Source of the DNA: Myxococcales bacterium
Lineage (GTDB): Bacteria; Myxococcota; Myxococcia; Myxococcales; Anaeromyxobacteraceae
Reading direction: 5' to 3'
NCBI GenBank assembly: GCA_021806645.1
Contig: JAJZQX010000016.1
Location: forward strand, 1 to 64,000
DNA: 64,000 nucleotides
Within the stretch, counting starts at the first letter, position 1. Each line of letters starts with the position of its first letter. Of this stretch, positions 46,429 through 64,000 are shown piece by piece. Made by a program: the position numbers and the translations under genes. The notes under the pieces were generated by a model. It was not told the origin of the DNA. It saw only the letters and a program-made list of their open reading frames with translations, and did not search any database.

Positions 46429-48231
46429 GTGAAACTCGCCAAGTTCGGTCCGTGGGTGGTTGGGGCGCTGGCGCTGGCGTGGGTGGCCCTGGGGCTGCTG
46501 CCGGCCAGGCCGGTGCGCGGGATGGACCTCGACGCCTTCGGGCGGCTGCCGGTGCTGGAGGGCGGGCGCATCAAGCCCCTCGACTCGGTGGCCCGCAATT
46601 CACTGCTGATGATCCGCAGCCAGATGAGCTTCCGCTTCGAGCAGGAGGTGGGTGGACGGAAGCAGGCCCACACCGTGGGGGCCGACGAGTGGCTTCTCGA
46701 CGTCCTCTTCCGGCCTGGGGTGGCGGACGCCCAGCCGGCCTTCGTGATCAACGACCCGGACGTCCTCTCGCTGATCGGGCAGAAGCTCTCGCAGGCCAAC
46801 CGCTACTTCGCCTTCAAGGACATCCGCCCGTTCCTCCCCGAGATCCAGAACCAGGCCGCGGCGGCCGAGCCCATCGACGCGAAGCAGCGGACCCGCTTCC
46901 AGGGGGCGGTGCTCAACCTCTACCAGCGGCTCGACCTCTACCTGCGGCTCGAGAACACGGTGCAGCTGCCGGGCGGCAAGTCGCTGGCCGAGGAGCTGGC
47001 GGTGGCGGGCGAGCCGTCGGCCCGCGAGCGGCACGCGATGCTCTCCAGCGCCGCCTTCTTCCGGCCGCTGCCGCCTCAGGGCGACGCCCAGGCCAGCTGG
47101 CGCAGCGTCGGCGAGGCGCTGCGCGACGCGGCCGGTGGCGGCCCGGCGGACGCCGGGCTGGCCTCGCTGGCCAGGGTCGGCACGGCCTGGCGCAGCGGGG
47201 ACGCGGCCGGCTTCAACGCCGCCGTGGCCGAGCTGCGGGCCTTCGGGGTGGCCGCCAGGCCGGAGGCGGTGGCGCAGGGCGACCACGAGATCGTCTTCAA
47301 CCGGGCCGATCCCTTCTACGCCGGCATGGTCCTCTACGTGGCGGCGCTGCTGCTGGTCTTCGCCTCGTGGCTCTGGCAGCCCGAGCTGCTGCGCCGTTCC
47401 GCCTTCGCGCTGCTGCTGTCGGGCGCGGTGGTCCACACGGCGGGCCTGGTCTCGCGGGTCATCCTGCAGGGGCGCCCGCCGGTCACCAACCTGTACTCGT
47501 CGGCGGTCTTCGTCGGCTGGGGCGCGGTGGTGCTCGGGGTGGTCCTGGAGCAGATGTACCGCAAGGGGTTCGGCACCGCGGTGGCGGCCGCTTCCGGGTT
47601 CGCCTCGCTCATCGTGGCGCACCACCTGACCGGTGACGGCGACACCATGGAGATGATGCGGGCGGTGCTCGACTCCAACTTCTGGCTGGCGACGCACGTC
47701 ACCACCATCACCATCGGCTACTCGGGCACCTTCCTGGCCGGCGCCATCGCCATCGCCTGGGCGCTGCGCAAGCACCTGGCGCCGTCGCTCCTGCCGGCCA
47801 CCGACAAGGCGCTGGTGTCGATGGCCTACGGCGTCATCTGCTTCGCGCTCTTCTTCAGCTTCATCGGCACCGTGCTGGGCGGCATCTGGGCCGACCAGTC
47901 GTGGGGCCGGTTCTGGGGCTGGGATCCCAAGGAGAACGGCGCGCTGCTGATCGTGCTCTGGAACGCCATCATCCTGCACGCCCGCTGGGGCGGTTACGTG
48001 CGCGACCGCGGCATCATGACCATGGCCATCTTCGGCAACGTCATCACCGCGCTCAGCTGGTTCGGCGTGAACATGCTGGGGGTCGGGCTCCACTCCTACG
48101 GCTTCATGGACAAGGCCTTCTGGGCGCTCTCCATCTTCATCGGCACGCAGCTCCTGCTGATGGCGCTGGCCCTGGCGCCACGCCGGTTCTGGAAGGGGAT
48201 CACTCCGGCGCCGGTGCCCCCGTCACCTTGA
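46429..48231 (+). CDS. ccsA: CcsA-like cytochrome c biogenesis (haem-handling) protein
   Basis: Membrane haem-handling protein of 600 residues. The C-terminal half (about 290-600) has eight or so helices with the haem-binding WWD motif 'WGRFWGWDPKENGALLIVLW' near residue 492 and conserved histidines ('AHHLTGDGDTMEM', 'LATHVTTITIGYSG', 'GVGLHSYGF'). The first half is a single N-terminal helix plus a long periplasmic segment (about 30-285), an extension seen in fused or delta-proteobacterial CcsA. GTG 46429 lies one base after the ResB stop. The 3' end overlaps a convergent lipoprotein gene by 32 bases. Confidence 0.9.
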   Translation: MKLAKFGPWVVGALALAWVALGLLPARPVRGMDLDAFGRLPVLEGGRIKPLDSVARNSLLMIRSQMSFRFEQEVGGRKQAHTVGADEWLLDVLFRPGVADAQPAFVINDPDVLSLIGQKLSQANRYFAFKDIRPFLPEIQNQAAAAEPIDAKQRTRFQGAVLNLYQRLDLYLRLENTVQLPGGKSLAEELAVAGEPSARERHAMLSSAAFFRPLPPQGDAQASWRSVGEALRDAAGGGPADAGLASLARVGTAWRSGDAAGFNAAVAELRAFGVAARPEAVAQGDHEIVFNRADPFYAGMVLYVAALLLVFASWLWQPELLRRSAFALLLSGAVVHTAGLVSRVILQGRPPVTNLYSSAVFVGWGAVVLGVVLEQMYRKGFGTAVAAASGFASLIVAHHLTGDGDTMEMMRAVLDSNFWLATHVTTITIGYSGTFLAGAIAIAWALRKHLAPSLLPATDKALVSMAYGVICFALFFSFIGTVLGGIWADQSWGRFWGWDPKENGALLIVLWNAIILHARWGGYVRDRGIMTMAIFGNVITALSWFGVNMLGVGLHSYGFMDKAFWALSIFIGTQLLLMALALAPRRFWKGITPAPVPPSP

Positions 48232-48652
48232 TCGGCTGGATCACCCAGACCGCCACCGGGCGGCCGGTCGGGTCGAAGCCGGGGAGCCAGTCGCACGAGG
48301 CGAAGGCCGCCTCGATGGCCCGGGCCTGCGCCGGTGGCACCGGCTTCAGGTAGGAGAACTGGACCAGGCTGCCGTCCCGGAGCACCGCGAACTTGACCTT
48401 GTTGTCGGCGCCGGCTGCGCCGGGGGCGCGGCGCAGCGCGTCGCCCAGGCAGCCCTCGTCCTCCAGCCGCGGCCGCCGGTAGCCCTGATCGTCGGTCCCC
48501 AGCCGCAGGATCTCACCGCCGTAGGCCACCGGCGGCGGCGCCCCGCCCGGATCCTCGTCGGGCACGCCGGCCCGGGCCCGTTCGGACGGACCGGCTCCGG
48601 TGGTCGCACAGGCGGTGGCGAGGAGCAGGGCGGCGCAGGCGGTTCGGGTCAC
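48200..48652 (-). CDS. Lipoprotein with TonB-C-like domain
   Basis: A 150-residue protein starting 'MTRTACAALLLATACATTGA', a lipoprotein signal with Cys15. The C-terminal part ('VKFAVLRDGSLVQFSYLKPV' and 'PTGRPVAVWVIQPIKV') resembles the small beta-alpha-beta domain at the end of TonB-like energy transducers and of many myxobacterial lipoproteins; an intervening helix 'ARAIEAAFASCDWLPGFD' completes it. Role unknown. It overlaps the end of ccsA on the opposite strand by 32 bases. Confidence 0.72.
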   Translation of the reverse strand: MTRTACAALLLATACATTGAGPSERARAGVPDEDPGGAPPPVAYGGEILRLGTDDQGYRRPRLEDEGCLGDALRRAPGAAGADNKVKFAVLRDGSLVQFSYLKPVPPAQARAIEAAFASCDWLPGFDPTGRPVAVWVIQPIKVTGAPAPE

Positions 48653-48946
48653 GGAGGCCTCCGCCGATCATCTACCACGCCGGAAGCAGCGGTTGGGCGC
48701 GGGCCCGGCGCTGGCCAGCGCGGGGCCAGGTCGCGGCACCGACGACCACCTCTCCCCGCACGGCGACGGCTCGGGCGATGCGGGGCGCCTTGACCTGGGA
48801 AAACTCGTCACATCACCCCGAGTAATTCGTCTGTCACCGGAGTGGCATCCATGCCCGGCATGTCGATTTACGCGAAGTTTGGTGGATCGATTCACGCTGG
48901 GCCAAGTAAGCTGGGCGTCCTAGCCAGCCTTCGCCGGGGAGGGAAC

Positions 48947-51900
48947 TTGTCTGCACGGGTCAACGCCGTCGCGGGGACTTTGAAGTCTGTCGTGACACGT
49001 TCGCCTCGGCGCGCCAGTGCGGCGCGAGCGGTCTCGCTGGCCCTCGCGGCTGGCGTCCTCCTGGCCCCGGTGGCGAAGGCCAGCGCGGAGAACGTCGGCC
49101 ACGTCGCGATCCTGCACCACGACGGGAGCTCGTACGAGGGGTCGGCGACGGTTCCGAACTCGGCGCCGAGGGAGCGAGCCTCCCGCGAGTTCTTCGCGAC
49201 GCACCGGGACGCCTACGACTTCCTGATCGTCTTTCCAGCTTTTCTCTTCGACCTCACCTGGAACCAGGCGGAGCTCGGAGGACTGCACACGCCGGTCCGC
49301 AACGAAGTGACCGGGACCGGCCGGCAGGTCGGTCCGTTCGCCGGGAGCTTCGGCTCCAACACACGGCTCAAGGCCTACATCGACATCAACACCCTGGTCC
49401 CGGGCCATCCGCAGGCCTCGCTGGACCAGTCGCTCGTCTTCATCGCCCATGAGGTGGCGCACCAGTGGTCGGGCGAAGCACGCTACCGCGACGCGAGCGG
49501 CACCAGCAGCGGAGGGCTGCTCGGGCAGGACGGGGCGCATTGGAGCTACTTCCTCTCCTCCCAGGCGTCGGTGCTCTACGGCTCCGACTGGAAGGCGGCA
49601 GGGCCGGGCCAGTTCACGGCGACCGGCTCGATGCGCCGCTACTCCGACCTCGACCTCTACCTCATGGGGCTGCTCTCGCCTGTCGAGGTGCGGCCTTTCA
49701 CGCTCATTCGCCCGGCGGTGGGCACGACAGCCGTGGCAACTGATCTGCCTCCGCCGAACGGCACCATGCTGTCCGGCGCCGCCGAGACCATCATCGTCGA
49801 CCAGGTAGTCGCGGCCAATGGCCCGCGCCTGCCAGCGGCTTCGGCCTCCCAGCGGACCTTCCGCGCCGCCTTCGCCATCTTGGCCGCCCCGGGGCAGACG
49901 CCCACCGCCGAGCAGGTCGCCTTCGTGGACGGTGTTCGTCGCCAGTGGGCCAACCAGTTCTTCTTCATGACGCGAGGGCGGGCGGTCATGGAGACCGACC
50001 TCCTGGAGGCCCAGCCGTCGGCATCGGCGGTGAGCCCCTCCGTCGATCTCGGGCTTGTCTGGCTGCTCTCCTCGCAGCGCGGCGACGGCGCGTGGGCTGA
50101 CTCCCCCGACACCGCGGCTCGCGAGACCCAGCTCGCGATGGAAGCGCTCGCGCTCTTCGGTGGGTCGCCGGGGGTGCCGGCCTCCCTTGGCCAGGGCGCG
50201 GGGTTCCTCTCCGCGCTCCAACCGGTCGAGGCCGACACCAGCGCCCGCCGCTTCCTGGGCCTACGCGCCGCTAGCCCGGGCCTGGCCCCTGACGCCGTGG
50301 CACCGTACTCGCCCTCTGCCGCCAACCCGGATGGCGGACTCGGCCTGGCCAGGGGCTACGGCTCCACGATCCTGGACTCCGTGCTTGCTGGGCTGGCTGG
50401 GGAGGGTACCGGGGCCAGCCTGGATGGAATCGCCGACTACTTGCTCGCCGCCCAGCGTGGCGATGGGGGGTGGCCGTGGATCCCGGGAGGGCGCAGCGAT
50501 CTCGAAACGACCTCGCTGGTCCTTCAGTTCCTGGCCAAGGTCGGCCGCTCGTTGCCCGTCGTCACCTCGGCCACCGCCGGCATGGCCTACCTCCGCGCCC
50601 GCCGGGCCTACGACTTCTCCATTCGTGATCCCGACACGGACGACGATTTCACGGCCGAGGCGGCCCTGGCGTTCGACGCCTGGGACGCCTCGTTTGCGCC
50701 CGACGCGAAGGGCACCATGGACGCCCTGCTGGCCAGGCAGTGGTCCGATGGAAGCTGGGAGGGCTCGGCGAAGAAGACGGCGGTCACGGTGCGGGCGCTG
50801 CGAAGCCTCAACCTCCCGAACCTGGTCATTGAGACCGCGGAGATCCAGCTGGCCAGCAGCTCCGCCACCGAAGGTGAGATCGTTCCGTCGCGGTTGCTGG
50901 TCCACAACCTCGGATATACCGACGCACCCCAGGTCCAGGTACAGGCATTCGACTCACTCGGGAGACCTTTCGGCCCGCCGGTCGTGATCCCAACGGTCAA
51001 GGCCTTCTGGCACTCGGTGGTGGACCTGGCGCTCGACACTTCGGGACATGCCGGCTCGTCGCAGGTCTTCTTCGTTGCTGACCCGCAATCAACCATCGAC
51101 GAAAAGACGAAGCAGGACAACCGGGCATCGGCCCCTCTGCGCATCGACGCTCGGCCCGCCGGCGTCGACCTCTTCGCGGCGGCGGGTTCCGTGGTTGTCG
51201 CGCCGAGCGTCGTGGACCGTGCCGCCGCCACGGTGTCGGTCACGGCCACGGTCGGCAACGCGGGCCAGACTGCAGCGCTCGACGTGGAGGTCGCACTCAT
51301 GGCCGGCACCACGGTGATCGGGACCGCGCGGCTGGCCTTCCCCGCCGCCAGCACGCAGGCGGTCACACTCTCAGGGCCGCTGCCGCGGGTGCTACCAAGC
51401 AACAACCTGCAGGTCGTGGTCGATCCGTCCAATTACGTTGCCGAAGCCCGAAAGGACAACAACGTCGCCTCGGGTCACGTGAACGTGGTCCCGGCGGTGG
51501 ACCTGGCGGTTCGGGCCGTCTCGGCCACGCCCACTCCGGTCGACCTCGGCGGCGACCTCCTCGTCCGGTTAGAGGTCGTCAATGACGGCACCGTCGATTC
51601 GGCGACGGTCACGACATCGCTTGCCTTGATCGATGCCGGCGGCGCGGTGGTGGCTCGCGTGGCTGGACCGCGCCTCGCCGTGCCACGTGGCGGTAACGCC
51701 AGCGGCGCCATCACCTGGCGCGCCTCCGATTCGAAGGCCGTGCTCGCGCGCGTCGAGGTGGCCTGCCAGGGCGACGTCGACCCCTCGAATGACTCGGCCC
51801 TCACCGCCATCGCCGTGAACACGTCGACCCTCCCCAACCTCGCCTTCGGGGCCGGAGGCATGGCCTTTCAACCCGAGCCACCTGATGAGGGCGCCCCCAC

Positions 51901-54900
51901 TTCGGTCACGGTGCAGGTTCGCAACGCCGGCGCCGCTTTGGCCGGAGCGTTCGCCGTCGAGTTTTGGGCCGGTGATCCGGCCTCGGGTGGGAAGCGCCTC
52001 GCCAGCGAGGAGGTCTCGGGGCTGGCGCCGGGTGAGCAGCGTCCAGTGACGATGAGCTTCCAGGTTCCCATCGGACCCTCGCTCGTCGGGATCGCGCAGC
52101 TCGACCCCGACAACCGGGTGCTGGAATTCGACGAGACTGACAACCGGCTCGTCCAGTTACTGGAGCCGCGAAGCCGGAGTGACCTGGTGGTCTCGAGTGG
52201 CGGAATCCGGCCCTCGAACCTGCTCCCTCGCCAAGGCGAGGTCGTCCCGGTTCGTGTCACCGTGCGCAATGCGGGCGGCCAGCCCAGCGGGGTGGCCCCG
52301 GTCGCGCTGTATCGCGGGGCGCCCGAGGCGGGTGGCGTGCTGCTGGGTGCCACGACGGTGCCGGCTCTGCCGCGCGGAGGCCAGACGGACCTGGAATTCC
52401 AGTGGGACACCACCGGCCTGGAGGGCACGTTCGAGCTCGTGGCCGTCGTCAACGCGGACCGGTCCACGCTCGAGGCGCGCTACGACAACAACCGGGCCGC
52501 GAGGACGGTGGCGGTCCAGGCCGCGAACCTCTCCCTGTCCGAACCCTACTTCTCACCCGACGGAGACGGGGTCAAGGACACCACCGAGGTCCTGTTCCGC
52601 TTCGACGGGGCTACGGCACCTGGCGTCGTGATCTTCGACGCGCGAGGGCGCGCGGTACGTACCTTGGCGTGCAGCACGGCCGCTGGCTCCGGGTCGGCGA
52701 TCTGGGACGGCCGGGACGGCAACGGTCAGATCGTTCGCGATGGCCCGTACCTGGTCAGCGTTCAGCGCGGGGCGGACCGAGTGGCGGCCACGGTCGTCGT
52801 GGTCGACACGAACCGCTCTACCGTCCTTCAGTCTCCTCGCGAACTGATCATGCTCGGCGACGTGGGCGCAGGCGCCCTGGCTACGGTCCCCGCGGACGCC
52901 CACGGCCCCTACATCAACGTGGCTGGCGCTACGCCAGACGACGACGAGGTCGTCTTCGAGTTCAGCTACTACACCGGATACTGGTGGGACTCGGTGAAGC
53001 ACTGCCAACTCCTTCGCGTGCCGGTCGAAGGCGGCGTGCCTGCCACGATGACGCCGGATGGCTGGGGCTGTCCACTTGGCACCGCCGTGCAGTTGGGCCC
53101 GGACGGTCGATCCGTCTACTACCTCACTGTCGACGGGACTGGGCGGTACCTCCCCTTCCGATTCGACATGGCGGCGCGCACGGCCGCTCCCGTCGTCCCG
53201 ACAGCGCTCGACGGTGGCGGCTACGGCTATAGCCAACTCGAGATCGGCACCGACGCTGCGTCTCTCTACGCGCAAAGCGGAAGTGGAGTCGAGCGGATCG
53301 CCATCGATGGTTCGGGCGCTCGCTCCGTCACCGGTTGGCAGAGCATCCCGATGTTCTCCCCCGACGGCGCCATGGGAATGGAGACGTTCTTCGGTTCGCA
53401 CGGGACCGAGTTGCACGTACGGAACGCGGACGGACTCGGTGACCGTGCCGTCGTCGTCGAGTACCCGCAGCCACAATGCCTCGAGTGGGGACCGGGGGAA
53501 GAGTGCGCGCGGTGGGAGCAGTCGCCGGTCCCAACGCCACCGGGCGCGCTGGTGCTGCCCGACGGCACTTGGCTCAGTTACCACGCATGGGTCTCAGCGA
53601 CCGAGATCGCCTACCTGGCTGGGGGGCTCTACCTGTTCGACCTCACCACCTGGAAGGCTGAAGAACTCATGCCGGCCGAGATGGTCCCATTCGACGTTCG
53701 AGGCCTCATGGGGGACCCGTCAGGCCAACGTCTCGCAATTAACCTCGGGACCCAGGTCTGGACCTACTCCCTCGTGGACGGCTCATACTCCTACCTCCAC
53801 GACTGGACGGGCCTGGAGCCGGTCGACAACCACATCGATTCCTCCAGGACCGGCCGTACGCACGTCGCGACACTCTGGGGCTCCAGCTCGCCCTCCTACG
53901 CCTACCGCTCGGTATCCACGTTGGCCAATCTAGGCCTGCGGCTTTCCGGCGTCCGCCGGCCGGGCAGCAGCGAAATGGTCTTCAGAGGGACTGCGGCGGA
54001 CCTCAATCTGGACTTCTGGGAGTTGAGCGCGCGGCCGCGCGGGTCTTCGGCTGCGCCGTTCGTCCTCGCGAGCGGCGCGGAAACGGTACTCGACGGAGAG
54101 CTGGTCCGGTGGACGCCTCCGGCCCCTGGGGTCTGGGAGGCGAAGCTCCATGCGCGTGACCGCGCCGGCAACGTGCGTTCCATCACCACCCTGGCCAGCT
54201 GGGCGGAGGTCCCAGCCATCGCCAACGTCCGAGTGAACCCGAGACTCTTCTCCCCGAATGGCGACGGCCGCCAGGACCTCGCAACGGTGAGCTACTCGGT
54301 TCAGGAGCCGGTCTCCACGGTGCTGGAGATCTCAAACCCGTCTGGCGCGGTGGTCCGCTCGCTGCCCATGACACACGCCCAGACCGGGAACTACGTCATC
54401 GAGTGGGATGGGCGCGATGTCGGCGGCCTGTCGCTCCCAGACGGAACCTACCGGTTCGCCGTCGGGAAGGAGAGTGCGCAGGCCATCCTCGACTCGACCT
54501 ACCCGGTGGCGACGCTCGCGCTCGGAAGCGGGGGCGCCGGCATGGGACTGTTGCCGATCAGGGTTCCCTTCGAGTACAGGCCGCCCATCGGTCCCATCAG
54601 TCCCAGCGTCGACTGTCCCCCGATGACGGACCGCCAGAAGCTGCACTTCTCCATCCCAAACTCCAACGACGCGACGGTCCTCGGCGTTGCCGTTTCCTAC
54701 CGCGCCTCGGACGATCACCTGGTCGGATATGAGTTCCAGGCGGCGAGTGTAGCCGCCCCGGCGTCGTTCGCCACGTTCGATAGGCAGTCCGGTAACGTCG
54801 ACCAATTGACGACGGCCGCGCTCATCGCAAACGGCTTGCCCGGTCCCTACCTCCGGCTTCGTGCCGTTGATGGCGCAGGCAACGAGACCACCACTCTTCC

Positions 54901-57900
54901 GATCGAAGTTCCCGAGGCCCTCGCAGTCACGGCATCTGGCCCCGGGCTATACACCGAGCCGGCCTGCATGGGCTACGCCATCACGGTGGCGATGCCCTCG
55001 GTGCAATTGGCGACGGACTACTTCCTCGACAGTCTCTCTGGACTGGGCACCGCGCCAGGCGTCCCGATCCAAGGCGGCTCGTTCTATCCGCTGTTCAACC
55101 ACATGAACTCAGCGGACGGTGGATTCTGCCCGGAGCCAGCGGTCCACGGGTTCGCGGTCGAGAATACCATTCGCCTGCCCGTCCTCAGCTACTCCGTTGC
55201 GTATCAGTTGGACGGGTTCTCGGGTTGGTTCGTGGACACCGACAATGTGCGCGCCACTCGCAATCACGCGGTCATCTGGGACGCCCGCGCCCTCGATGGT
55301 CTCGCCACGGCCGTTCAGGTCCGTGCCACCGACACGGCAGGCCGGGTCTTCGCTTCCGACGTCAAGCTGGCGTGCCGGCCCGAAGACACGATCGATGCCG
55401 AAACGATCTGTGCCACGCCGGTCACGTCCTCGAGCCTTTCGATCAGAATCGCCCAGAGCGGGTCCGTGTTCGTCGACAGAACGGTCTACACTCTCAGGAA
55501 CAAGGAGACGGGCGAGACGGTCCAAGTTCCGAAGAAGACGGCATCCCAGGGCACCACCACCAACTCCTCCGGCGAGATCGTTCACTCACAAGAGGACGTC
55601 ATCACCCTCGACCTGACTTCCCTCACGGGCTGCCAGTACGAGCTCCTGGCCAACAGATCGACCATCACGGGCCCCTATCCGCCGGTCCCGCTGTCGTCCT
55701 TCAATGCTTGCGGCCTCGTGGCAACGCACAGTGAGGTTCGAGGCGACACCCTGCGCCTTTCGATGTCCGAGACTCACCGGAAGCCGATCGCATGGGTCGA
55801 TGTCTACCTCAGTGCGACAGCCTCACCATCGAGGCTGGTCGGTACGGTACCGGGCTTCGAGGGGACATCGCCGCCCGTTGAACTCTCGTTGGCAGACCTG
55901 CCCTGCCAGCAGGACCTTTCCATTTCCGCGCGAACGCACTTCCTGGATGGCTCCGCGGTCAGTGAAGAGCTCTTCCAGCCCGGGACATGTCACGGGTCCT
56001 CTCTCTCCAAGTCGTGCGCCAGCGTGATCCTTTCCGCGGTCCGCGAGTCGACGCCGATCTGCGCCGGGCGTCCCGCCGGATTCGGGTTGAGCGCGAGCGC
56101 CAGCAGCCCATCGGAACCAATTGAGGCCATCGACATCCAGGTCTCCGTGCCGGGCCTGGCGCCGATCCAACTCGGCGGGACCCCATTCACGCCGGGGAAG
56201 GTGGTGACGTCGAGCGCCATGCTCCCAGGCGGCACCCTCGCCGACGGCCGCTATCTGGCAACGGCACTCGCCACGGATCTGACCGGTCGCTTGACCATCT
56301 CGAAGGGGGTGCCCATCGTCCTCGACGCCACGCCTCCATGGATGCAGGTCACCGAGCCCAGCGCAGGCGCCACCGTATGCCCGTTCGACCGGCTCTTGCC
56401 TTCCGGGCAGAAGGTCCGCTCCATCCGCGTGCAGGGCGCCGTCTACGACGACCACCTGGAGGGCCTCAGCGTCCTCTTCAAGTGCGGCAGCGGCCAACCC
56501 CAACCGGTCGCCCTGACCCAGGCCGATGGTGCCCTGGCCGCGTTCGACGTGGGTGGACAGCGGGGTGAGTGTGAAATGGTACTCGAGGCGCACGACGCGG
56601 GTGGTTCATACTGCCTGCCGTCTATTCCGTTCCACCTGGCCGGCAACGCCGCCGTGTCAGGCGGTGCATGGCCGACGCTCTTCTCTCCCAATGCCGACGG
56701 AGTCCTCGACTTCGAGCAACTGGTCATCGGCGTGCAGGATCCTTCCTCCGTCCAGGTGGTAGGCAAGGATTCGCGCGCTCGCCAAGGCCTGGCCTGGTCC
56801 GGGTTCGTGCAGCCTGGAGCCGGCCCCATCCCGTGGGATGGTAGGCTCGACGGCGTCCCAGCGGCCGACGGCGATGTCTCACTCGAGGTGAGCGCCGTGG
56901 ACCCGTGCAACGGCACGACGGTTGCCCAGATCGCGGTGAAGGTCGACACCACCCCGCCGCTGGTGCGCCTCGATTCTCCCGTGGCCGGCGCGCGCGCGGG
57001 AGGCTTGGCCACCCTCACCGGCGAAATCTCCGACGCCAACTTCCTCGACTACGAGGTGGCTCTCGGTGCCGGAACGGCGCCAACTACCTTCCAGGTCGTC
57101 GACCACAGCTTTGCGCCAGCGCTTGGACCAATCTCCGAGGTCATCACCTCGCGCCTGGCCGCCGGCCCTCATACCCTACGGGTGACGGCGCACGATCGCG
57201 CCGGCAACCAGTCGGTCGTCATGGTGACCATCGAGGTGGCGCCCAGAGAGATCATCAACCTGTTCTCCACGGCACCGGGGCTCATCTCCCCGAATGGCGA
57301 CGGGATGCTGGACACGACCACGGCTCAGTTCCAGTTGCTGGCCGACGCCACCACTCAGCTCGACCTCGTGGACGCCACTGGGACGCTCCTTGCCGTCGTC
57401 CAGCCTCCGGCTCCTACGCTCAGCGGCGACGGCTCGATTCCGATCCCGGCATCGGTCTTGGCCACCTTGGCCAGCGGCTGGTTCGCACTGCGCTTGACTG
57501 CGACCGTCGCCTCGCTCACCGAGCAGGAGACCGTCCCCTTCACCGTCGACCTCAAGCCGCCATCGCTCTCCATCGACGCTCCCGGCCCGGGGGCATCCAT
57601 CGCCCGCGCCACCCCGGTAACCGGCGCGGTGGCCGATGAACACCTAGAGTCCTGGTCGCTCACGATCGAAGGCGGCGGTACGACCTCACTCGCGACTGGC
57701 ACCGCGCCGACGAGAGGCATCCTGGCCAGCCTCGACGGCCTGGCCGAGGGAGACCACCGCCTGCGCCTCAGCGCCCGAGACCGCGCCGGCAACCCCGCCG
57801 CGACCGAGGTCGCCTTCTCGGTCGACCGGACCCCGCCAGCGGTCGCCTTCATCAGTCCTCTCGACGGCGGCTGGCTGTCCGGCCTCGCGGCTCCCGCCCT

Positions 57901-60900
57901 TATACTGGCCGAAGTGAAGGACTCCCGCCTGGCGTCGGTGAACCTGGAGTCCACGCCGAGTGGTGGCACCGCCATGACGGTGTTTTCGGCGCCCGTCCTC
58001 TCCCTGGACGGGCGTATCGAGTGGCCTACCACGGCAGCCATGGACGGCCCGGTTCAACTCCGACTCGTGGCCATCGATCTCGCCGGAAACGCCGGTGACG
58101 CCACCATCTCCGTCACCTTGGACAGCACGCCCCCTGTGGCTCTCATCGCGGCACCGCGCGAGACGTTCCTGCGGTCCGGAGACGCCATCCTCGGCACGGC
58201 CAGCGATGTCAACCTGGCCTCATGGACGCTGGAGCTGGCCGACGGACCTCCGTTGCCCATCTCCATCTGGGCCTTGCTGGCCTCAGGACAGGGCTCGATC
58301 GACTCGGGCGCGCTGGCCACCCTCGCGACCCTGCCGCCAGACGGCGCCCACGCCCTTCGGCTCACCGTCACGGACCATGCGGGAAACTCCAGCGTCGACA
58401 CGATCGCCTTCGTGGTCGATACCACGTCGCCCCAGCCGCCGCCGGCCTTGACGGCGACGCCCAGCGGAACCGGTGTGGCCCTCGCCTGGCAGCCCAGTCC
58501 CGACGGCGACGTGGTTGGCTATATCGTGGAGCGCGCCACCGGACTTGGCGGCTTCGTGGAGGTCGGTCCGGCCGTCGCCGGTCTCTCGCTCATGGACCAG
58601 GCGGTCGGCGACGGTGCGCAGCGCTATGTGGTCGTGGCCGTTGACGCGGCTGGTCTACGAAGTGTCCCTTCGCCGGAGGCGCCGGTCAGCCTCGACCGCA
58701 CGCCGCCGCAGGTCGCCATCGACCAACCGATCGCTGGCGCGGCCGTGAGCGGCCTGGTTCAAGTGCGTGGGACCGCCTTCAGCGCAAGTGACTTCCGCGA
58801 GTATCGGCTCACCGTGGGTGCCGGCGCTGCTCCGACCGTCTGGGCCGAGTTGCGTCGATCGTCCCTGCCGGGGATCGCCACGAAGCTCGGTGAGCTCGAT
58901 ACAGGACAGTTCCCTGACGGGAGCGTGCAGACCATTCGGCTCGAGGCCGAGGACCTCACCGGCAACGTGGCCCAGGCCCGTGTGCAGGTGGTCATCGACC
59001 GGCAGCCACCGGCACCGCCGGTGCTGACTTCAGCTACCGCCGCGGGCTCCACGGCTGCAATCACCTGGACGTCTGGAGGGGAAGCCGACCTGGCCGGCTT
59101 CCTCCTGCTCAGAGATGGCTCGATCGCCAATGCGCCGATCGGTGCATTCCTCTCCGATGTTCGCCCCTTCTTGCTGTCTCCAGGTACGCTCTCCTACTCC
59201 GACGCCTCTCTGCCCGACGGCAGTTACACCTACGAGGTGCAGGCCTACGATCGGGCCGGAAACGCCAGCGGCCTGTCGAACGCCCTCACGGTCGAGGTGG
59301 AGACCCATCCACCTCACGCCTCCATCATCGTGCCGGTCAACTTCACCCGTATCCAGGGTGTGGTCGACATGGTTGCGGAGGTGCCCGATCAGGATGTTGC
59401 GACGGTCCAGTTCCAGGTTCGGCCAGGGGGCGCAGCGGACTTCCAGCCGCTTGGCGCTCCGGTGACACGGATCCCGTTCCACACCTCGCTCGATCCTGCG
59501 GCCTTCCAGGCGCCTGTTCTCGAGGTGCGCGCCATCGCCACCGACAAGCGCGGCAATGTCGACCCACGGCCGTCCTCGGTCGTCCTGTTTGCAGTGGCAC
59601 CACCGGTCGCCCCCGTCGTGACGCCCCGGGTCACGGGAGGGGACGTGGCGCTCTCGTGGAGTGATCTCAACCCGTCAGGCGTCGTCGCGGGCTACGAGGT
59701 GGCACGTGACGGCACATCGCTTGTGCCCGCGGCCGGACTTCCCGCCGGGGCTGCCACGGCCAGCGGGTCGACCGCCAGCGCCCAGCTTGCGGCGGACGGG
59801 CTCGGCTATACGGCGTGGACGACGCCCAAGGTCGGCGTGCCATGGTGGCAACTCGACTATCCCAGTGCGGTCCTGGTTCGCTCAATCTCCGTAGGGACCT
59901 ACCTGGCGGCGGAGATCGAAGTCGCGGTGTCGGTGGCCGGCGCCTGGGTCCCGCTGCGGCGGGCCATGGTCAGTGGCTACGACTCGGTTCCGCTCTCGCC
60001 GGAGCTGGCCATCCAGGGCGTGCGTGTCACCTTCCTCACTTCGAGCTTTGGGACGGTTGGCCTCTACGACGTGGCGGTCGAGCCGGTGGCGCTGGTCACC
60101 GGGCCGCCTCTTCAGGATCCGTACCTCACCGATGGCAGCCACGACTACGTGGTCACGGCGGTGTCCGCCTTTGGCCTGCGAACCGATGGTCGGGCCACGG
60201 CGCGCGTGTATGCCCCGACGATCGAGGTACCTGCGCCGGTTACGGCAAGCTCACCGATCCGCGTCGCAGGGAGTGGCGCCACCGCTGGCGCCGACGTGAG
60301 CGTGTTGCGTGGGGGGACGGCGACTACGACGGCGACGGCGGCGGCCGACGGCGCCTTCGTTCTCGATGTACCGCTCCTCGACGGGCCCAACGAATTGACG
60401 GCCATCGCCACCGACGCCGGCGGCAACGTCAGCCGGCCGTCGCTCCCGGTGGCGGTGACGCTCGATGCGCCGCCAGCGGCCATCTTGTCCCTGGCGCTCG
60501 GCGCGGTCGTCAACTCCGACGTTGCGCTCACTTTCACGGCGGCAGGCGACACCGCCCGCATTTCCGGCTTCCACGTGATGCGGAGCGGCGGCGGAGCGAG
60601 CGGCCTGGTCGCCACGCTCGCGCCCGAAGCCCGGAGCTTCACGGACCAGGGCGTGCCAAACGGTACCTACGACTACCGGGTGGTGGCGTTCAACGGCAGT
60701 GGAATCGAGGGCGCAGCGTCCAACATGGTGACGGCAGTCATCTCCATCGCTCCTCCTGATGCGCCGAAGAACCTCCTGGTGGCGGCGATTCCCGGCGGAG
60801 GCGCGCTGCGCCTCGACTGGGACTTCGCGGGAGATCCGGGGCGCGGCTTCCTGGTGGAGCGCGCGACTGCGGCTGTCGGCCCCTTCGCTCCCGTCAACGA

Positions 60901-63900
60901 AGGCGCCCTCCGGACCACGCTCGCCTACCTCGACCTCGGTCTTGCCAACGGCACGACCTACTTCTACCGAGTCCGCTACGTCGATCTCGTCGGGAACTCC
61001 GGCGCGCCATCGGCCGTGGCCTCGGGTCAGCCGCTCGACTCGTTGAACCCCGAGCGGCCCTTCTTGACCAGGCCGACCCTTCCGGGCAGTTCGATCGCGG
61101 TCTTCACGGAGTTCGTGGACGTCTCGGGGCTGGCGGAGCCCGGCAGCCTCGTCGAACTCCGCCGTGACGGGATCTGGGTTGGCGAGGACTACGCGGGTCC
61201 CATGCAACTGGAGGCCAACCAGCTCTGGACCCTGCCCGCGGGGGCCAGCTACAGCGTCTCCGCGGATCCACGGTGCTACGCCATCACCGCAGGATCCGGC
61301 GCTGCTTCCAGTCTCTCACTCTACACGCAGGTCTCCAGCGTCAGCCTGTCCGACGCGGGGCTCGCCGAATTCGGTCGGGTTACTTTCTCGCCGGATTGCG
61401 CCCGCTTCGCCTTCGAGGCCACCTCGGTGGCCGACGGCCGGCGCCGGGTCTGGTCTGGCGCCTCCTCGGATTGGAGCTACGGCCCGACCAGCACGCTGGT
61501 CGGAGAGGAGAGAGCGCCCGCCTGGTCGAACGACGGCGCGCGGCTTGCGTACGAGGCGGTGCGACCCGGCAACGCAAGCTCCGTCGTGGCCGTGCTCGAC
61601 CTGGTAGCCGCCAGCGAGCGTGTGCTGGAGCTCCCGGGCAGCCAACTCGGAAGCCCCGGCTGGCTCCCGGACGGTGCGCTGCTGGCGCTCGCGGTAGGCG
61701 GCCTCACGGGGACCACGGGACTTGTCCGTCTTCCGCTCGACGGCGCGCCGCCGGGGTCCACACTTCCGATCGGTGACGGCTTCGATCGTCTGGCGATCTC
61801 GCCCCTGGGGGACTACGCGGCCGTCTCCACCTCGGCCTCGCCGGGCAGGGTGCTTCTAATCGAGTTGGCCTCCGGCGCGATCACGCCGGTCTCGGCCTCC
61901 GGTGCCGACGGTCGGCTCCCGGTCTTCGCTGGAGCCCGGTCGCTCGCCTACCTGAGCGACGGCACGCTGAACCTCCGGAGCCTGGCGACGGGCGTGGAAT
62001 CGTCCCTCGGTGTCATCGATCCGCTCGCCTCGCTCGCCTGGACCTCGCGCGGACTCCAGGGAGCCTCAGAGGCCGGCATGGTGACCTCCTACCTGGTGGG
62101 TGGGCCCTTCACGATTGCGGGCATCCGGCTTACCGCGGGCGAAAGCCAGTTCGTGGCGACGGCCACTGACCAGGCCGGCCACCGCAGCTCGCCCTCCGAG
62201 GCCATCGCCGTCACCTTCGACGGAGTCGACTTGCCCGACCTGGCGGTCTCCGTGGTGCTGCAGCCTGAGATCCCGGTGGCGGGAGGACCGGCCAGCGCGC
62301 TCGTCACCGTTCGCAACATCGGTGGAGCGGCCGCGAGACCGGCCTCCGTGAGCGTGGTGGCGACCGCTCCGGGAGGAGCCGAGGTGGCGTCTTCCATGAC
62401 GGCCATCGACGCGCTGCAACCCGGGTCCTCGACCATCGCGATCGTGGCTGTATTGGTGCCGGTGGGCGGCACCTATCGCCTGCTTGCCACGATCGATCCG
62501 GCTGGCCTGGTCGCCGACGCCAACCGGTCGAACAACCAGGTGGTCAAGAGCTTCATCGTGGCGACCACCAGCGTGGCTGGCGTCAGCGTCTCGGTCCTCC
62601 CCAGCGCGGTCTCGGTCGATGGCACTGTCACGGCCACGGTGCAGGTGGTGAACCCAGGCCTGCCATTCGACGCTTCGGTCCAGACCCGGTTGGTCGACGG
62701 GGCTGGCGCGACCGTGGTCGCGGCGGCGCCCGCCACATACGCTCCGCTCCGAAACGGCGTCACCAACCTCAGCCGTACCTTCGCCGTCGGCACCACCTTG
62801 GCGGGGGAGTACCAGATCGTCGCCGAGGTCCGCGTCGGGGGCGCCGTGCAGGTGCAGGCTTCCTCGCCGGTCACCGTCCTCCCGGAGCGCTCGGTCAGCC
62901 TGTCTCTCGCGCCGAATCGGGCACAGCTCTTCAGCGGAGACGACGCTCGGTTCAACGCAACCATCGGTAACCTCTCGCGGAACGCGGCGCTCGAGGGTGC
63001 CGAGTATGCGGTCACGGTCGAGACCACTACCGGCACGCCGGTCTACACGGTGCCGGCGGTGCCGCTTCCGCTCCTCTGGCTCGGCCTGTCCGTGCCTGTG
63101 ACCACCGTGGTCCCTGGCCAGGCGCTCGCCTCGGGCGACTACGTGGCCCACGCTTCGGTAAGCCTGGGCAGCGCCATCCTGGCCGAGGACTCCGCGCCGT
63201 TCAGTCTGGTGGGTCGGCCGCGCGTCGTGGCGCGCCTTGACGTCCCCGGCGCCGGCCAGAGTGGTGCTCCTGCAGGCGTCACGGTCGGCTCGGTCCTTCG
63301 AGTGAGCACGCTGGTCGAAAACCAGGGCGGGGCGACCGCCCTCGGCATCGTCGAGCAGCTCAGGGTCGTATCCCCGGAGACGGGCGCTCCCTTGCTCACC
63401 CTGGAGGTCCCGATGGGCGACCTACCAGGGGGCGCCGCCGTTCCCCAGGATTTCCTGGTTCCAACAGCGGATCTTGCGAGGGGGCTATACGGCTTGTCGC
63501 TGCTGGTCACGCACGACGGGATCTCGGAGATCCTGGCCACGGCGCGGTTCCGGGTCCTCGATGGCCAGTCGCCGATGCTGGAGCTGGTCGGGCCCTCGCC
63601 TGGGGTGGTGGTCAACGGCAGAGTCCAGGTGACCGTCGTCGCGCGCGACGACGCGTCGGGTGTCGCGGCGGTGCGGGTTGTGATGGGCGGCGTCGAGGTG
63701 GCGCTGAGCCGGTTCGATGGATCTCCACTTTCGGGGACCTGGGCCGGCTCCGTGGCGCTCGCCGGCGAGGGGCTGCATGAACTGGTCGTGAGCGCGGTCG
63801 ACGCCGACGGCAATGACGGTCGGACCAGGCCAGCGGCAGGCAACCCGCTCCCGTTCCAGGTGGTGAACGACACGGTGGCTCCGGTCCTCTCCGTCCTGGG

Positions 63901-64000
63901 CATCGTGGACGGGGCCATCACCAGCGCCGTGGTGGTCCCGGTGGTGGAGGCGACCGATCTGCACCTGGCCGCGACGGGCGCGCAGTTGAACGGCATGCCG
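48947..64000 (+). CDS. Giant secreted multidomain protein (HEVAH motif, CARDB/Ig/FlgD-like repeats), 3' end outside window
   Basis: One frame stays open from 48947 to the window end, at least 5018 codons. TTG 48947 follows GGGGAGGG; GTG 48992 is an alternative and both give a Sec signal ('SLALAAGVLLAPVAKASA'). Visible order (residues): 'FIAHEVAHQW' zinc-protease-like motif at 168-172; squalene-cyclase-like repeats ('SQRGDGAW', 'AAQRGDGGWPW') about 365-610; CARDB-like domains about 625-1195; FlgD-like modules opening FSPxGDG at 1201, 1768, 2578 and 2779; a propeller-like stretch about 1300-1660; many 'D(R/T)TPP' Ig-like repeats 2665-3450; a discoidin-like segment 3605-3720; fibronectin-III-like 3935-4025; a second propeller-like stretch 4105-4365; more CARDB-like repeats to the end. 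Likely a surface or secreted adhesin/protease. Codon choice looks less GC-extreme than in neighbours. Confidence 0.85.
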   Translation, partial: MSARVNAVAGTLKSVVTRSPRRASAARAVSLALAAGVLLAPVAKASAENVGHVAILHHDGSSYEGSATVPNSAPRERASREFFATHRDAYDFLIVFPAFLFDLTWNQAELGGLHTPVRNEVTGTGRQVGPFAGSFGSNTRLKAYIDINTLVPGHPQASLDQSLVFIAHEVAHQWSGEARYRDASGTSSGGLLGQDGAHWSYFLSSQASVLYGSDWKAAGPGQFTATGSMRRYSDLDLYLMGLLSPVEVRPFTLIRPAVGTTAVATDLPPPNGTMLSGAAETIIVDQVVAANGPRLPAASASQRTFRAAFAILAAPGQTPTAEQVAFVDGVRRQWANQFFFMTRGRAVMETDLLEAQPSASAVSPSVDLGLVWLLSSQRGDGAWADSPDTAARETQLAMEALALFGGSPGVPASLGQGAGFLSALQPVEADTSARRFLGLRAASPGLAPDAVAPYSPSAANPDGGLGLARGYGSTILDSVLAGLAGEGTGASLDGIADYLLAAQRGDGGWPWIPGGRSDLETTSLVLQFLAKVGRSLPVVTSATAGMAYLRARRAYDFSIRDPDTDDDFTAEAALAFDAWDASFAPDAKGTMDALLARQWSDGSWEGSAKKTAVTVRALRSLNLPNLVIETAEIQLASSSATEGEIVPSRLLVHNLGYTDAPQVQVQAFDSLGRPFGPPVVIPTVKAFWHSVVDLALDTSGHAGSSQVFFVADPQSTIDEKTKQDNRASAPLRIDARPAGVDLFAAAGSVVVAPSVVDRAAATVSVTATVGNAGQTAALDVEVALMAGTTVIGTARLAFPAASTQAVTLSGPLPRVLPSNNLQVVVDPSNYVAEARKDNNVASGHVNVVPAVDLAVRAVSATPTPVDLGGDLLVRLEVVNDGTVDSATVTTSLALIDAGGAVVARVAGPRLAVPRGGNASGAITWRASDSKAVLARVEVACQGDVDPSNDSALTAIAVNTSTLPNLAFGAGGMAFQPEPPDEGAPTSVTVQVRNAGAALAGAFAVEFWAGDPASGGKRLASEEVSGLAPGEQRPVTMSFQVPIGPSLVGIAQLDPDNRVLEFDETDNRLVQLLEPRSRSDLVVSSGGIRPSNLLPRQGEVVPVRVTVRNAGGQPSGVAPVALYRGAPEAGGVLLGATTVPALPRGGQTDLEFQWDTTGLEGTFELVAVVNADRSTLEARYDNNRAARTVAVQAANLSLSEPYFSPDGDGVKDTTEVLFRFDGATAPGVVIFDARGRAVRTLACSTAAGSGSAIWDGRDGNGQIVRDGPYLVSVQRGADRVAATVVVVDTNRSTVLQSPRELIMLGDVGAGALATVPADAHGPYINVAGATPDDDEVVFEFSYYTGYWWDSVKHCQLLRVPVEGGVPATMTPDGWGCPLGTAVQLGPDGRSVYYLTVDGTGRYLPFRFDMAARTAAPVVPTALDGGGYGYSQLEIGTDAASLYAQSGSGVERIAIDGSGARSVTGWQSIPMFSPDGAMGMETFFGSHGTELHVRNADGLGDRAVVVEYPQPQCLEWGPGEECARWEQSPVPTPPGALVLPDGTWLSYHAWVSATEIAYLAGGLYLFDLTTWKAEELMPAEMVPFDVRGLMGDPSGQRLAINLGTQVWTYSLVDGSYSYLHDWTGLEPVDNHIDSSRTGRTHVATLWGSSSPSYAYRSVSTLANLGLRLSGVRRPGSSEMVFRGTAADLNLDFWELSARPRGSSAAPFVLASGAETVLDGELVRWTPPAPGVWEAKLHARDRAGNVRSITTLASWAEVPAIANVRVNPRLFSPNGDGRQDLATVSYSVQEPVSTVLEISNPSGAVVRSLPMTHAQTGNYVIEWDGRDVGGLSLPDGTYRFAVGKESAQAILDSTYPVATLALGSGGAGMGLLPIRVPFEYRPPIGPISPSVDCPPMTDRQKLHFSIPNSNDATVLGVAVSYRASDDHLVGYEFQAASVAAPASFATFDRQSGNVDQLTTAALIANGLPGPYLRLRAVDGAGNETTTLPIEVPEALAVTASGPGLYTEPACMGYAITVAMPSVQLATDYFLDSLSGLGTAPGVPIQGGSFYPLFNHMNSADGGFCPEPAVHGFAVENTIRLPVLSYSVAYQLDGFSGWFVDTDNVRATRNHAVIWDARALDGLATAVQVRATDTAGRVFASDVKLACRPEDTIDAETICATPVTSSSLSIRIAQSGSVFVDRTVYTLRNKETGETVQVPKKTASQGTTTNSSGEIVHSQEDVITLDLTSLTGCQYELLANRSTITGPYPPVPLSSFNACGLVATHSEVRGDTLRLSMSETHRKPIAWVDVYLSATASPSRLVGTVPGFEGTSPPVELSLADLPCQQDLSISARTHFLDGSAVSEELFQPGTCHGSSLSKSCASVILSAVRESTPICAGRPAGFGLSASASSPSEPIEAIDIQVSVPGLAPIQLGGTPFTPGKVVTSSAMLPGGTLADGRYLATALATDLTGRLTISKGVPIVLDATPPWMQVTEPSAGATVCPFDRLLPSGQKVRSIRVQGAVYDDHLEGLSVLFKCGSGQPQPVALTQADGALAAFDVGGQRGECEMVLEAHDAGGSYCLPSIPFHLAGNAAVSGGAWPTLFSPNADGVLDFEQLVIGVQDPSSVQVVGKDSRARQGLAWSGFVQPGAGPIPWDGRLDGVPAADGDVSLEVSAVDPCNGTTVAQIAVKVDTTPPLVRLDSPVAGARAGGLATLTGEISDANFLDYEVALGAGTAPTTFQVVDHSFAPALGPISEVITSRLAAGPHTLRVTAHDRAGNQSVVMVTIEVAPREIINLFSTAPGLISPNGDGMLDTTTAQFQLLADATTQLDLVDATGTLLAVVQPPAPTLSGDGSIPIPASVLATLASGWFALRLTATVASLTEQETVPFTVDLKPPSLSIDAPGPGASIARATPVTGAVADEHLESWSLTIEGGGTTSLATGTAPTRGILASLDGLAEGDHRLRLSARDRAGNPAATEVAFSVDRTPPAVAFISPLDGGWLSGLAAPALILAEVKDSRLASVNLESTPSGGTAMTVFSAPVLSLDGRIEWPTTAAMDGPVQLRLVAIDLAGNAGDATISVTLDSTPPVALIAAPRETFLRSGDAILGTASDVNLASWTLELADGPPLPISIWALLASGQGSIDSGALATLATLPPDGAHALRLTVTDHAGNSSVDTIAFVVDTTSPQPPPALTATPSGTGVALAWQPSPDGDVVGYIVERATGLGGFVEVGPAVAGLSLMDQAVGDGAQRYVVVAVDAAGLRSVPSPEAPVSLDRTPPQVAIDQPIAGAAVSGLVQVRGTAFSASDFREYRLTVGAGAAPTVWAELRRSSLPGIATKLGELDTGQFPDGSVQTIRLEAEDLTGNVAQARVQVVIDRQPPAPPVLTSATAAGSTAAITWTSGGEADLAGFLLLRDGSIANAPIGAFLSDVRPFLLSPGTLSYSDASLPDGSYTYEVQAYDRAGNASGLSNALTVEVETHPPHASIIVPVNFTRIQGVVDMVAEVPDQDVATVQFQVRPGGAADFQPLGAPVTRIPFHTSLDPAAFQAPVLEVRAIATDKRGNVDPRPSSVVLFAVAPPVAPVVTPRVTGGDVALSWSDLNPSGVVAGYEVARDGTSLVPAAGLPAGAATASGSTASAQLAADGLGYTAWTTPKVGVPWWQLDYPSAVLVRSISVGTYLAAEIEVAVSVAGAWVPLRRAMVSGYDSVPLSPELAIQGVRVTFLTSSFGTVGLYDVAVEPVALVTGPPLQDPYLTDGSHDYVVTAVSAFGLRTDGRATARVYAPTIEVPAPVTASSPIRVAGSGATAGADVSVLRGGTATTTATAAADGAFVLDVPLLDGPNELTAIATDAGGNVSRPSLPVAVTLDAPPAAILSLALGAVVNSDVALTFTAAGDTARISGFHVMRSGGGASGLVATLAPEARSFTDQGVPNGTYDYRVVAFNGSGIEGAASNMVTAVISIAPPDAPKNLLVAAIPGGGALRLDWDFAGDPGRGFLVERATAAVGPFAPVNEGALRTTLAYLDLGLANGTTYFYRVRYVDLVGNSGAPSAVASGQPLDSLNPERPFLTRPTLPGSSIAVFTEFVDVSGLAEPGSLVELRRDGIWVGEDYAGPMQLEANQLWTLPAGASYSVSADPRCYAITAGSGAASSLSLYTQVSSVSLSDAGLAEFGRVTFSPDCARFAFEATSVADGRRRVWSGASSDWSYGPTSTLVGEERAPAWSNDGARLAYEAVRPGNASSVVAVLDLVAASERVLELPGSQLGSPGWLPDGALLALAVGGLTGTTGLVRLPLDGAPPGSTLPIGDGFDRLAISPLGDYAAVSTSASPGRVLLIELASGAITPVSASGADGRLPVFAGARSLAYLSDGTLNLRSLATGVESSLGVIDPLASLAWTSRGLQGASEAGMVTSYLVGGPFTIAGIRLTAGESQFVATATDQAGHRSSPSEAIAVTFDGVDLPDLAVSVVLQPEIPVAGGPASALVTVRNIGGAAARPASVSVVATAPGGAEVASSMTAIDALQPGSSTIAIVAVLVPVGGTYRLLATIDPAGLVADANRSNNQVVKSFIVATTSVAGVSVSVLPSAVSVDGTVTATVQVVNPGLPFDASVQTRLVDGAGATVVAAAPATYAPLRNGVTNLSRTFAVGTTLAGEYQIVAEVRVGGAVQVQASSPVTVLPERSVSLSLAPNRAQLFSGDDARFNATIGNLSRNAALEGAEYAVTVETTTGTPVYTVPAVPLPLLWLGLSVPVTTVVPGQALASGDYVAHASVSLGSAILAEDSAPFSLVGRPRVVARLDVPGAGQSGAPAGVTVGSVLRVSTLVENQGGATALGIVEQLRVVSPETGAPLLTLEVPMGDLPGGAAVPQDFLVPTADLARGLYGLSLLVTHDGISEILATARFRVLDGQSPMLELVGPSPGVVVNGRVQVTVVARDDASGVAAVRVVMGGVEVALSRFDGSPLSGTWAGSVALAGEGLHELVVSAVDADGNDGRTRPAAGNPLPFQVVNDTVAPVLSVLGIVDGAITSAVVVPVVEATDLHLAATGAQLNGMP

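What the first reader, a model, noticed from the sequence alone, without database searches (positions are those of the whole stretch)
48947..64000. Giant secreted protein of more than 5000 residues with a protease-like head and an unusual domain series
A single frame without stops runs 15 kb to the window edge. The order seen (signal peptide, HEVAH motif, cyclase-like alpha/alpha repeats, CARDB-like domains, FlgD-like FSPNGDG modules, propeller-like stretches, Ig-like repeats, discoidin-like and fibronectin-like segments) is not one I can match to a characterised protein. Giant repeat proteins in gliding or predatory bacteria often act in adhesion or prey contact, but that is inference.
Basis: partly seen in the sequence, partly recalled or inferred. 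Interest (0 to 1): 0.78.

Follow-up and report, generated by a model that had tools for sequence, protein, structure and literature searches.

The report
Giant partner of secreted Rhs toxin
A soil-type myxobacterium carries a secreted protein of about 6,000 amino acids, probably part of a bacterial weapon, because across its phylum it almost always occurs with, and usually directly in front of, a second 4,000-residue exported protein whose end looks like an interchangeable toxin.

Summary
The open frame is real. It continues past the window to contig position 66931 and encodes about 5,994 residues (start TTG 48947). The head motif HExxH is kept in all 18 giant homologues found in 195 Myxococcota genomes; in the three best-compared, similarity runs end to end at about 35% identity. 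The frame overlaps by 4 bases the next gene, a 3,854-residue exported RHS/YD-repeat protein with a Cys-less transglutaminase-like domain and a unique C-terminal tip; an 87-codon ORF of immunity-gene type follows. Across the phylum, giant and this RHS subfamily co-occur (17 of 18 versus 1 of 177 genomes) and are adjacent in 11 of 15 testable loci. RHS cores are conserved while tips are replaced; giants are conserved throughout. I read the giant as the constant partner (surface scaffold, adhesin or delivery factor) of a large secreted Rhs polymorphic toxin. The partnership is well supported; the mechanism is inferred. In the literature read here, delivery of the large signal-peptide Rhs toxins of myxobacteria is unexplained, so this pair is a testable candidate. 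No sorting signal or barrel was recognised at the C-terminus.

The parts
48947..64000 (+). giant gene, part inside the window; the frame continues to contig position 66931 (5,994 residues in all). Beyond the window (same contig, numbering continued): C-terminal region 65519-66928; RHS partner gene 66928-78492; 87-codon ORF 78480-78743; orphan RHS cassette 78695-81931; 110-codon ORF 81915-82247
   Evidence: homologues
48936..48943 (+). ribosome-binding-site-like GGGGAGGG before TTG 48947
   Evidence: read from sequence
48947..49087 (+). Sec signal-peptide-like N-terminus (RR..., hydrophobic core, ASA|EN cleavage site)
   Evidence: read from sequence; no signal-peptide program available
49088..50026 (+). 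HExxH head domain (no Pfam family); motif HEVAHQW 49448-49468, then HW(S) at 49538 and (D/E)xYxMG at 49652
   Evidence: motif kept in all 18 giants
50039..50815 (+). alpha/alpha toroid, squalene-hopene-cyclase type
   Evidence: 14 of 14 homologues match PF13249; PDB cyclases E 4e-22
50816..52549 (+). series of CARDB domains
   Evidence: PF07705 1.1e-41, four stretches
52550..52822 (+). first FlgD-like Ig module (FSPDGDG)
   Evidence: PF13860
52823..54247 (+). beta-propeller-like stretch and linker
   Evidence: PD40 in homologue G141
54248..54480 (+). second FlgD-like Ig module (FSPNGDG)
   Evidence: PF13860 6.6e-22, CHU_C 2.5e-9
56681..59600 (+). further SPNxDG modules, Ig-like (Big_13, Big_3_3) and fn3 repeats
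59738..60100 (+). F5/8 type C (discoidin)-like domain (end approximate)
   Evidence: PF00754 in homologue G141, E 0.001; located by sequence
61220..62200 (+). second beta-propeller-like stretch (PD40/TolB); end approximate
62234..64000 (+). CARDB and Ig repeats, continuing to about 65518 outside the window

Best explanation
The giant is the constant partner of a large, Sec-exported RHS/YD-repeat polymorphic toxin in Myxococcota. Shown: the two genes overlap here, sit side by side in most genomes that have either, and share a patchy distribution; the giant is conserved along its whole length while the RHS tip is replaced between close relatives. Inferred: both proteins are exported by Sec. The giant, a chain of Ig-like, CARDB, propeller and discoidin/fibronectin-like domains, works outside the cell as scaffold and adhesin that anchors or presents the RHS shell and brings it to a target cell. 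The HExxH head either processes the RHS protein (release or maturation) or helps at the target surface. The shell then releases its C-terminal tip into the target; kin are protected by the small gene behind each tip.
For: Operon: 4-base overlap here. The RHS gene (in one genome first a paralogue of its N-terminal part) directly follows or overlaps the giant in 11 of 15 loci where the contig goes on, and lies one gene further in G113. Co-occurrence: RHS partner in 17 of 18 giant genomes versus 1 of 177 others, Fisher p 3e-22, not corrected for phylogeny. Correlated divergence of giant and RHS N-termini over 12 genomes, Mantel r 0.91, p 1e-4. Tips: RHS identity is about 80-93% over most of the length but about 20% in the last tenth in two close pairs, while the giant stays at 66-92% throughout. 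In G112 a lone giant coexists with two RHS genes at other loci, as expected of shared machinery serving several effectors. RHS genes of another subfamily in Myxococcus-type genomes (G138, G140) have no giant upstream. Literature: Rhs4/Rhs5 of M. xanthus (~4,000 residues, signal sequence) act in kin discrimination without T6SS, presumably from the cell surface (PMC10433427); whether recognition is required is marked unknown for the very large myxobacterial Rhs class (PMC10047993).
Against: No experiment; no physical interaction shown. Three related genomes (G110-G112) keep the giant away from RHS genes. No membrane anchor, barrel or known secretion signal was found at the giant's C-terminus, so surface location is not shown. 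Co-occurrence and distance correlation partly reflect shared ancestry. The two tips and the 110-codon ORF matched no toxin or immunity family. The structure model of the head failed (pLDDT 34).
Confidence: 0.5

Rival explanations
1. The giant is a stand-alone surface adhesin or matrix protein used in gliding, biofilm or prey contact; it lies next to the RHS gene because both belong to one mobile island.
For: Adhesin-like domain set; unlinked giants in G110-G112; island-like patchy distribution, with left-flank similarity to the sister genome G002 ending near 48632; alternative C-terminus resembles putative adhesive domains.
Against: Different genomic sites but the same pair, in the same order and usually with overlapping genes; genomes with unlinked giants still keep the RHS partner elsewhere (G111, G112; fragments in G110).
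Confidence: 0.22
2. The giant is chiefly a processing protease: its HExxH head cuts the RHS shell or target-surface proteins, the repeats only position it.
For: HExxH, H(W/Y) and D/E positions kept in all 18 giants; RHS proteins are known to need cleavage to free their tips (established knowledge for T6SS Rhs effectors).
Against: Small relatives of the head often have QExxH, so the family may not be uniformly catalytic; no known peptidase family matched beyond a weak M1 hit in 1 of 14.
Confidence: 0.15
3. The giant is analogous to the large delivery subunit of ABC (Tc) toxin complexes: a delivery body for an RHS cocoon.
For: A second very large gene in front of an RHS gene; RHS shell with variable tip.
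Against: No Tc-type domain was found in either protein; domain make-up is unrelated.
Confidence: 0.05

Closest known systems
Large signal-peptide Rhs toxins of myxobacteria (M. xanthus Rhs4/Rhs5, PMC10433427)
   Same: RHS partner of about 4,000 residues with signal-peptide-like start, variable C-terminal tip, accessory distribution
   Different: No giant partner is mentioned in the passages read; whether rhs4/rhs5 themselves have one was not tested
Bacterial teneurin-like proteins (PMC13018210)
   Same: Exported YD-shell polymorphic toxins, frequent in Myxococcota, with immunity genes and no known delivery machinery
   Different: Partner here has no detected NHL domain, only a sub-threshold YD-shell match on the orphan, and a transglutaminase-like domain instead
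CDI (CdiA/CdiB)
   Same: Two large linked genes, polymorphic toxin tip, immunity gene, contact model
   Different: No FHA-type stalk and no CdiB-type barrel identified; the toxin is RHS, the giant has no variable tip
ABC (Tc) toxins
   Same: RHS cocoon with variable tip plus a second very large protein
   Different: No Tc-type domains in giant or RHS N-terminus

Membership tests
Rhs polymorphic toxin system (RHS partner gene) | RHS/YD repeats and conserved core end | tested here: met
   PF05593 1.5e-61, DUF6531 1e-11; core end GRFISRD
Rhs polymorphic toxin system (RHS partner gene) | Variable C-terminal tip on conserved core | tested here: met
   Close pairs: core about 80-93%, last 300 columns 21-22%; tips mostly without similarity
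Rhs polymorphic toxin system (RHS partner gene) | Immunity gene directly downstream | tested here: inconclusive
   87- and 110-codon ORFs overlap the two tips' ends; the 110-codon ORF matched no family, the 87-codon ORF was not searched
Rhs polymorphic toxin system (RHS partner gene) | Tip is toxic | not testable with these tools
   no family match for either tip
T9SS-sorted protein (giant) | C-terminal T9SS sorting domain | tested here: not met
   CHU_C/TIGR04131 hits lie on an internal FlgD-like module near residue 1800, none at the C-terminus
HExxH metallopeptidase (giant head) | HExxH plus a conserved third ligand | tested here: inconclusive
   HExxH, H(W/Y) and D/E kept in 18 giants; small relatives often QExxH; structure model failed
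Bacterial teneurin-like protein (RHS partner) | FN-plug, NHL and YD-shell | tested here: not met
   Pfam scan finds no NHL and only a sub-threshold YD-shell hit on the orphan P0003
ABC (Tc) toxin | Tc-type large subunit and SpvB/TcaC-type N-terminus | tested here: not met
   no such Pfam hits in either protein, nor NCBIfam hits in the giant
CDI two-partner system | CdiB-type barrel and FHA repeats | tested here: not met
   none in the giant or RHS gene

The most novel reading that the evidence does not exclude
The giant is the missing delivery or display component of the large Sec-exported Rhs toxins of myxobacteria: a two-protein, contact-dependent system unlike T6SS, CDI, OME or Tc, in which one conserved giant can serve several RHS effectors.
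Probability: 0.3. Interest if true: 0.85.

Novelty: new variant of a known kind. Interest (0 to 1): 0.62.

Why it matters
Published work shows that large secreted Rhs proteins discriminate kin in Myxococcus without T6SS, and leaves open how they are shown to or delivered into the neighbour. A conserved, almost obligatory giant partner gives a concrete gene to delete and a protein to localise, and it would help explain why such RHS genes are accessory and patchy.

Tried and rejected
T9SS sorting: rejected (internal hits only). Viral, phage and plasmid collections: no giant; only a distant head-domain hit on a Granulicella plasmid and distant RHS hits on Methylomonas and Spartinivicinus plasmids. 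The single genome-contig scan found one relative (Myxococcus sp. RHSTA-1-4); that scan is insensitive, so presence outside Myxococcota is open. First head alignment had two rows on the wrong strand and was redone. Papers naming a giant partner of myxobacterial Rhs: none found in the library held; the primary Rhs4/Rhs5 paper is not held.

Full report
Observation. The + strand frame is open from 48842 to the window edge. On the contig (C20, 85,669 bases) it ends at 66931. TTG 48947 is preceded by GGGGAGGG and gives 5,994 residues with a signal-peptide-like start.

Domains. Pfam and NCBIfam find CARDB (1e-41), FlgD_ig (7e-22), Big_13/Big_3_3, fn3, PD40/TolB and weak squalene-cyclase hits. All 14 aligned homologues match the cyclase N-terminal domain, and a profile matches solved cyclases at E 4e-22, so the alpha/alpha toroid is sound. 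F5/8C is weak, E 0.001 in a homologue. The HExxH head has no Pfam family; one of 14 rows touches Peptidase_M1 at 0.004.

Homologues. Head searches over 195 Myxococcota genomes find 18 genomes with giant frames of 4,419-6,355 residues, two of them cut by contig ends. The giants of G021, G047 and Myxococcus sp. RHSTA-1-4 align with this one along about 5,400 residues at about 35% identity. All 18 keep HExxH, a following H(W/Y) and (D/E)xYxMG; many short proteins (420-990 residues) share only the head, several with QExxH. The C-terminal region is of one kind in 11 giants (ends near YWEARW; weak match to a beta-galactosidase domain, E 0.001, which I read as Rossmann/GATase-like) and a DUF7305/putative-adhesive beta-helix in 5 (DUF7305 detected in 4 of the 5). 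On a tree of the N-terminal 1,450 residues a group with the first kind nests, with full support, among rows with the second, so the end has been exchanged.

The neighbour (outside the window). The next gene, C20:66928-78492, overlaps by 4 bases and encodes 3,854 residues: signal-peptide-like start, transglutaminase-like domain, Big_1 (below its cut-off), DUF6531, RHS repeats and a tip of about 380 residues. The transglutaminase-like stretch (residues 281-480) holds no cysteine in 9 of 10 RHS proteins checked, this one included, so it is probably a binding or structural domain. Behind it lie an 87-codon ORF (C20:78480-78743), an orphan with a signal-peptide-like start, a duplicated RHS core (99.65% over 1,999 bases) and another tip (C20:78695-81931), a 110-codon ORF (C20:81915-82247), and a serine recombinase.

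Conservation of the pair. A profile of the RHS N-terminus finds this subfamily in 17 of the 18 giant genomes (counting fragments at contig ends in G110 and a truncated gene in G087) and in one other, G155, which has only a 113-residue head fragment in addition to short head proteins. Fisher p is 3e-22 without correction for relatedness. The eighteenth, G065, shows only an 86-position match and its giant is cut by the contig end. Of 15 giants whose contig continues, 11 have the RHS gene, or in Myxococcus sp. RHSTA-1-4 first a 2,001-residue paralogue of its N-terminal part, immediately next; G113 has it behind one aldehyde-dehydrogenase-like gene; G110-G112 have it elsewhere or in fragments. G112 has two RHS genes at two other loci without giants. 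RHS genes of another subfamily in G138 and G140 are preceded by a 730-746-residue gene, not a giant.

Evolution. Giant and RHS N-terminal distances correlate (12 pairs, Mantel r 0.91). dN/dS of the giant is 0.18, 0.35 and 0.60 in three pairs; in the two RHS pairs compared only the end is replaced. The upstream ccs genes are present in all 24 family genomes, but only G000 and G021 of them carry a giant, and similarity to sister genome G002 ends near 48632: an accessory locus.

Interpretation. The pair fits the class of very large Rhs proteins with signal peptides described for M. xanthus, active in kin discrimination without T6SS (PMC10433427) and of unknown recognition requirement (PMC10047993); teneurin-like toxins have the same open delivery question (PMC13018210). 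The giant is the invariant, adhesin-like part. That it presents, anchors, processes or delivers the RHS shell is inference; that the two function together is the strongest conclusion the sequence allows.

Noticed in passing
contig C20 78695-81931 (L004:14695-17931): The orphan's N-terminus (signal peptide, then GHLAVVH) resembles the giant's mature start (GHVAILH), as if a second giant+RHS operon had collapsed by deletion into a fusion.
   Followed up: partly
contig C20 82472-85615: IS66 TnpB-like fragments (recognised by eye) and a 703-residue serine recombinase follow the RHS cassettes at the contig end.
   Followed up: partly
L034:292-6297 (Myxococcus sp. RHSTA-1-4): A 2,001-residue paralogue of the RHS partner's N-terminal part, without RHS repeats, has a HEYGHHLGLNN metallopeptidase-like stretch near its end and sits between giant and RHS gene.
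   Followed up: no
L122:2772-4964 (-) and L123:14106-16346 (+): A conserved 730-746-residue gene lies directly upstream of the other, 3,100-residue RHS family in two Myxococcus-type genomes; possibly the partner of that family.
   Followed up: no
loci L009-L012, L054-L066: Many 420-990-residue proteins in Myxococcota share the head domain, several with QExxH for HExxH: a domain family without a Pfam match here.
   Followed up: partly
window 48203-48652 (-): 150-codon minus-strand ORF with lipoprotein-like start between ccsA and the giant; mostly within the stretch similar to sister genome G002.
   Followed up: no
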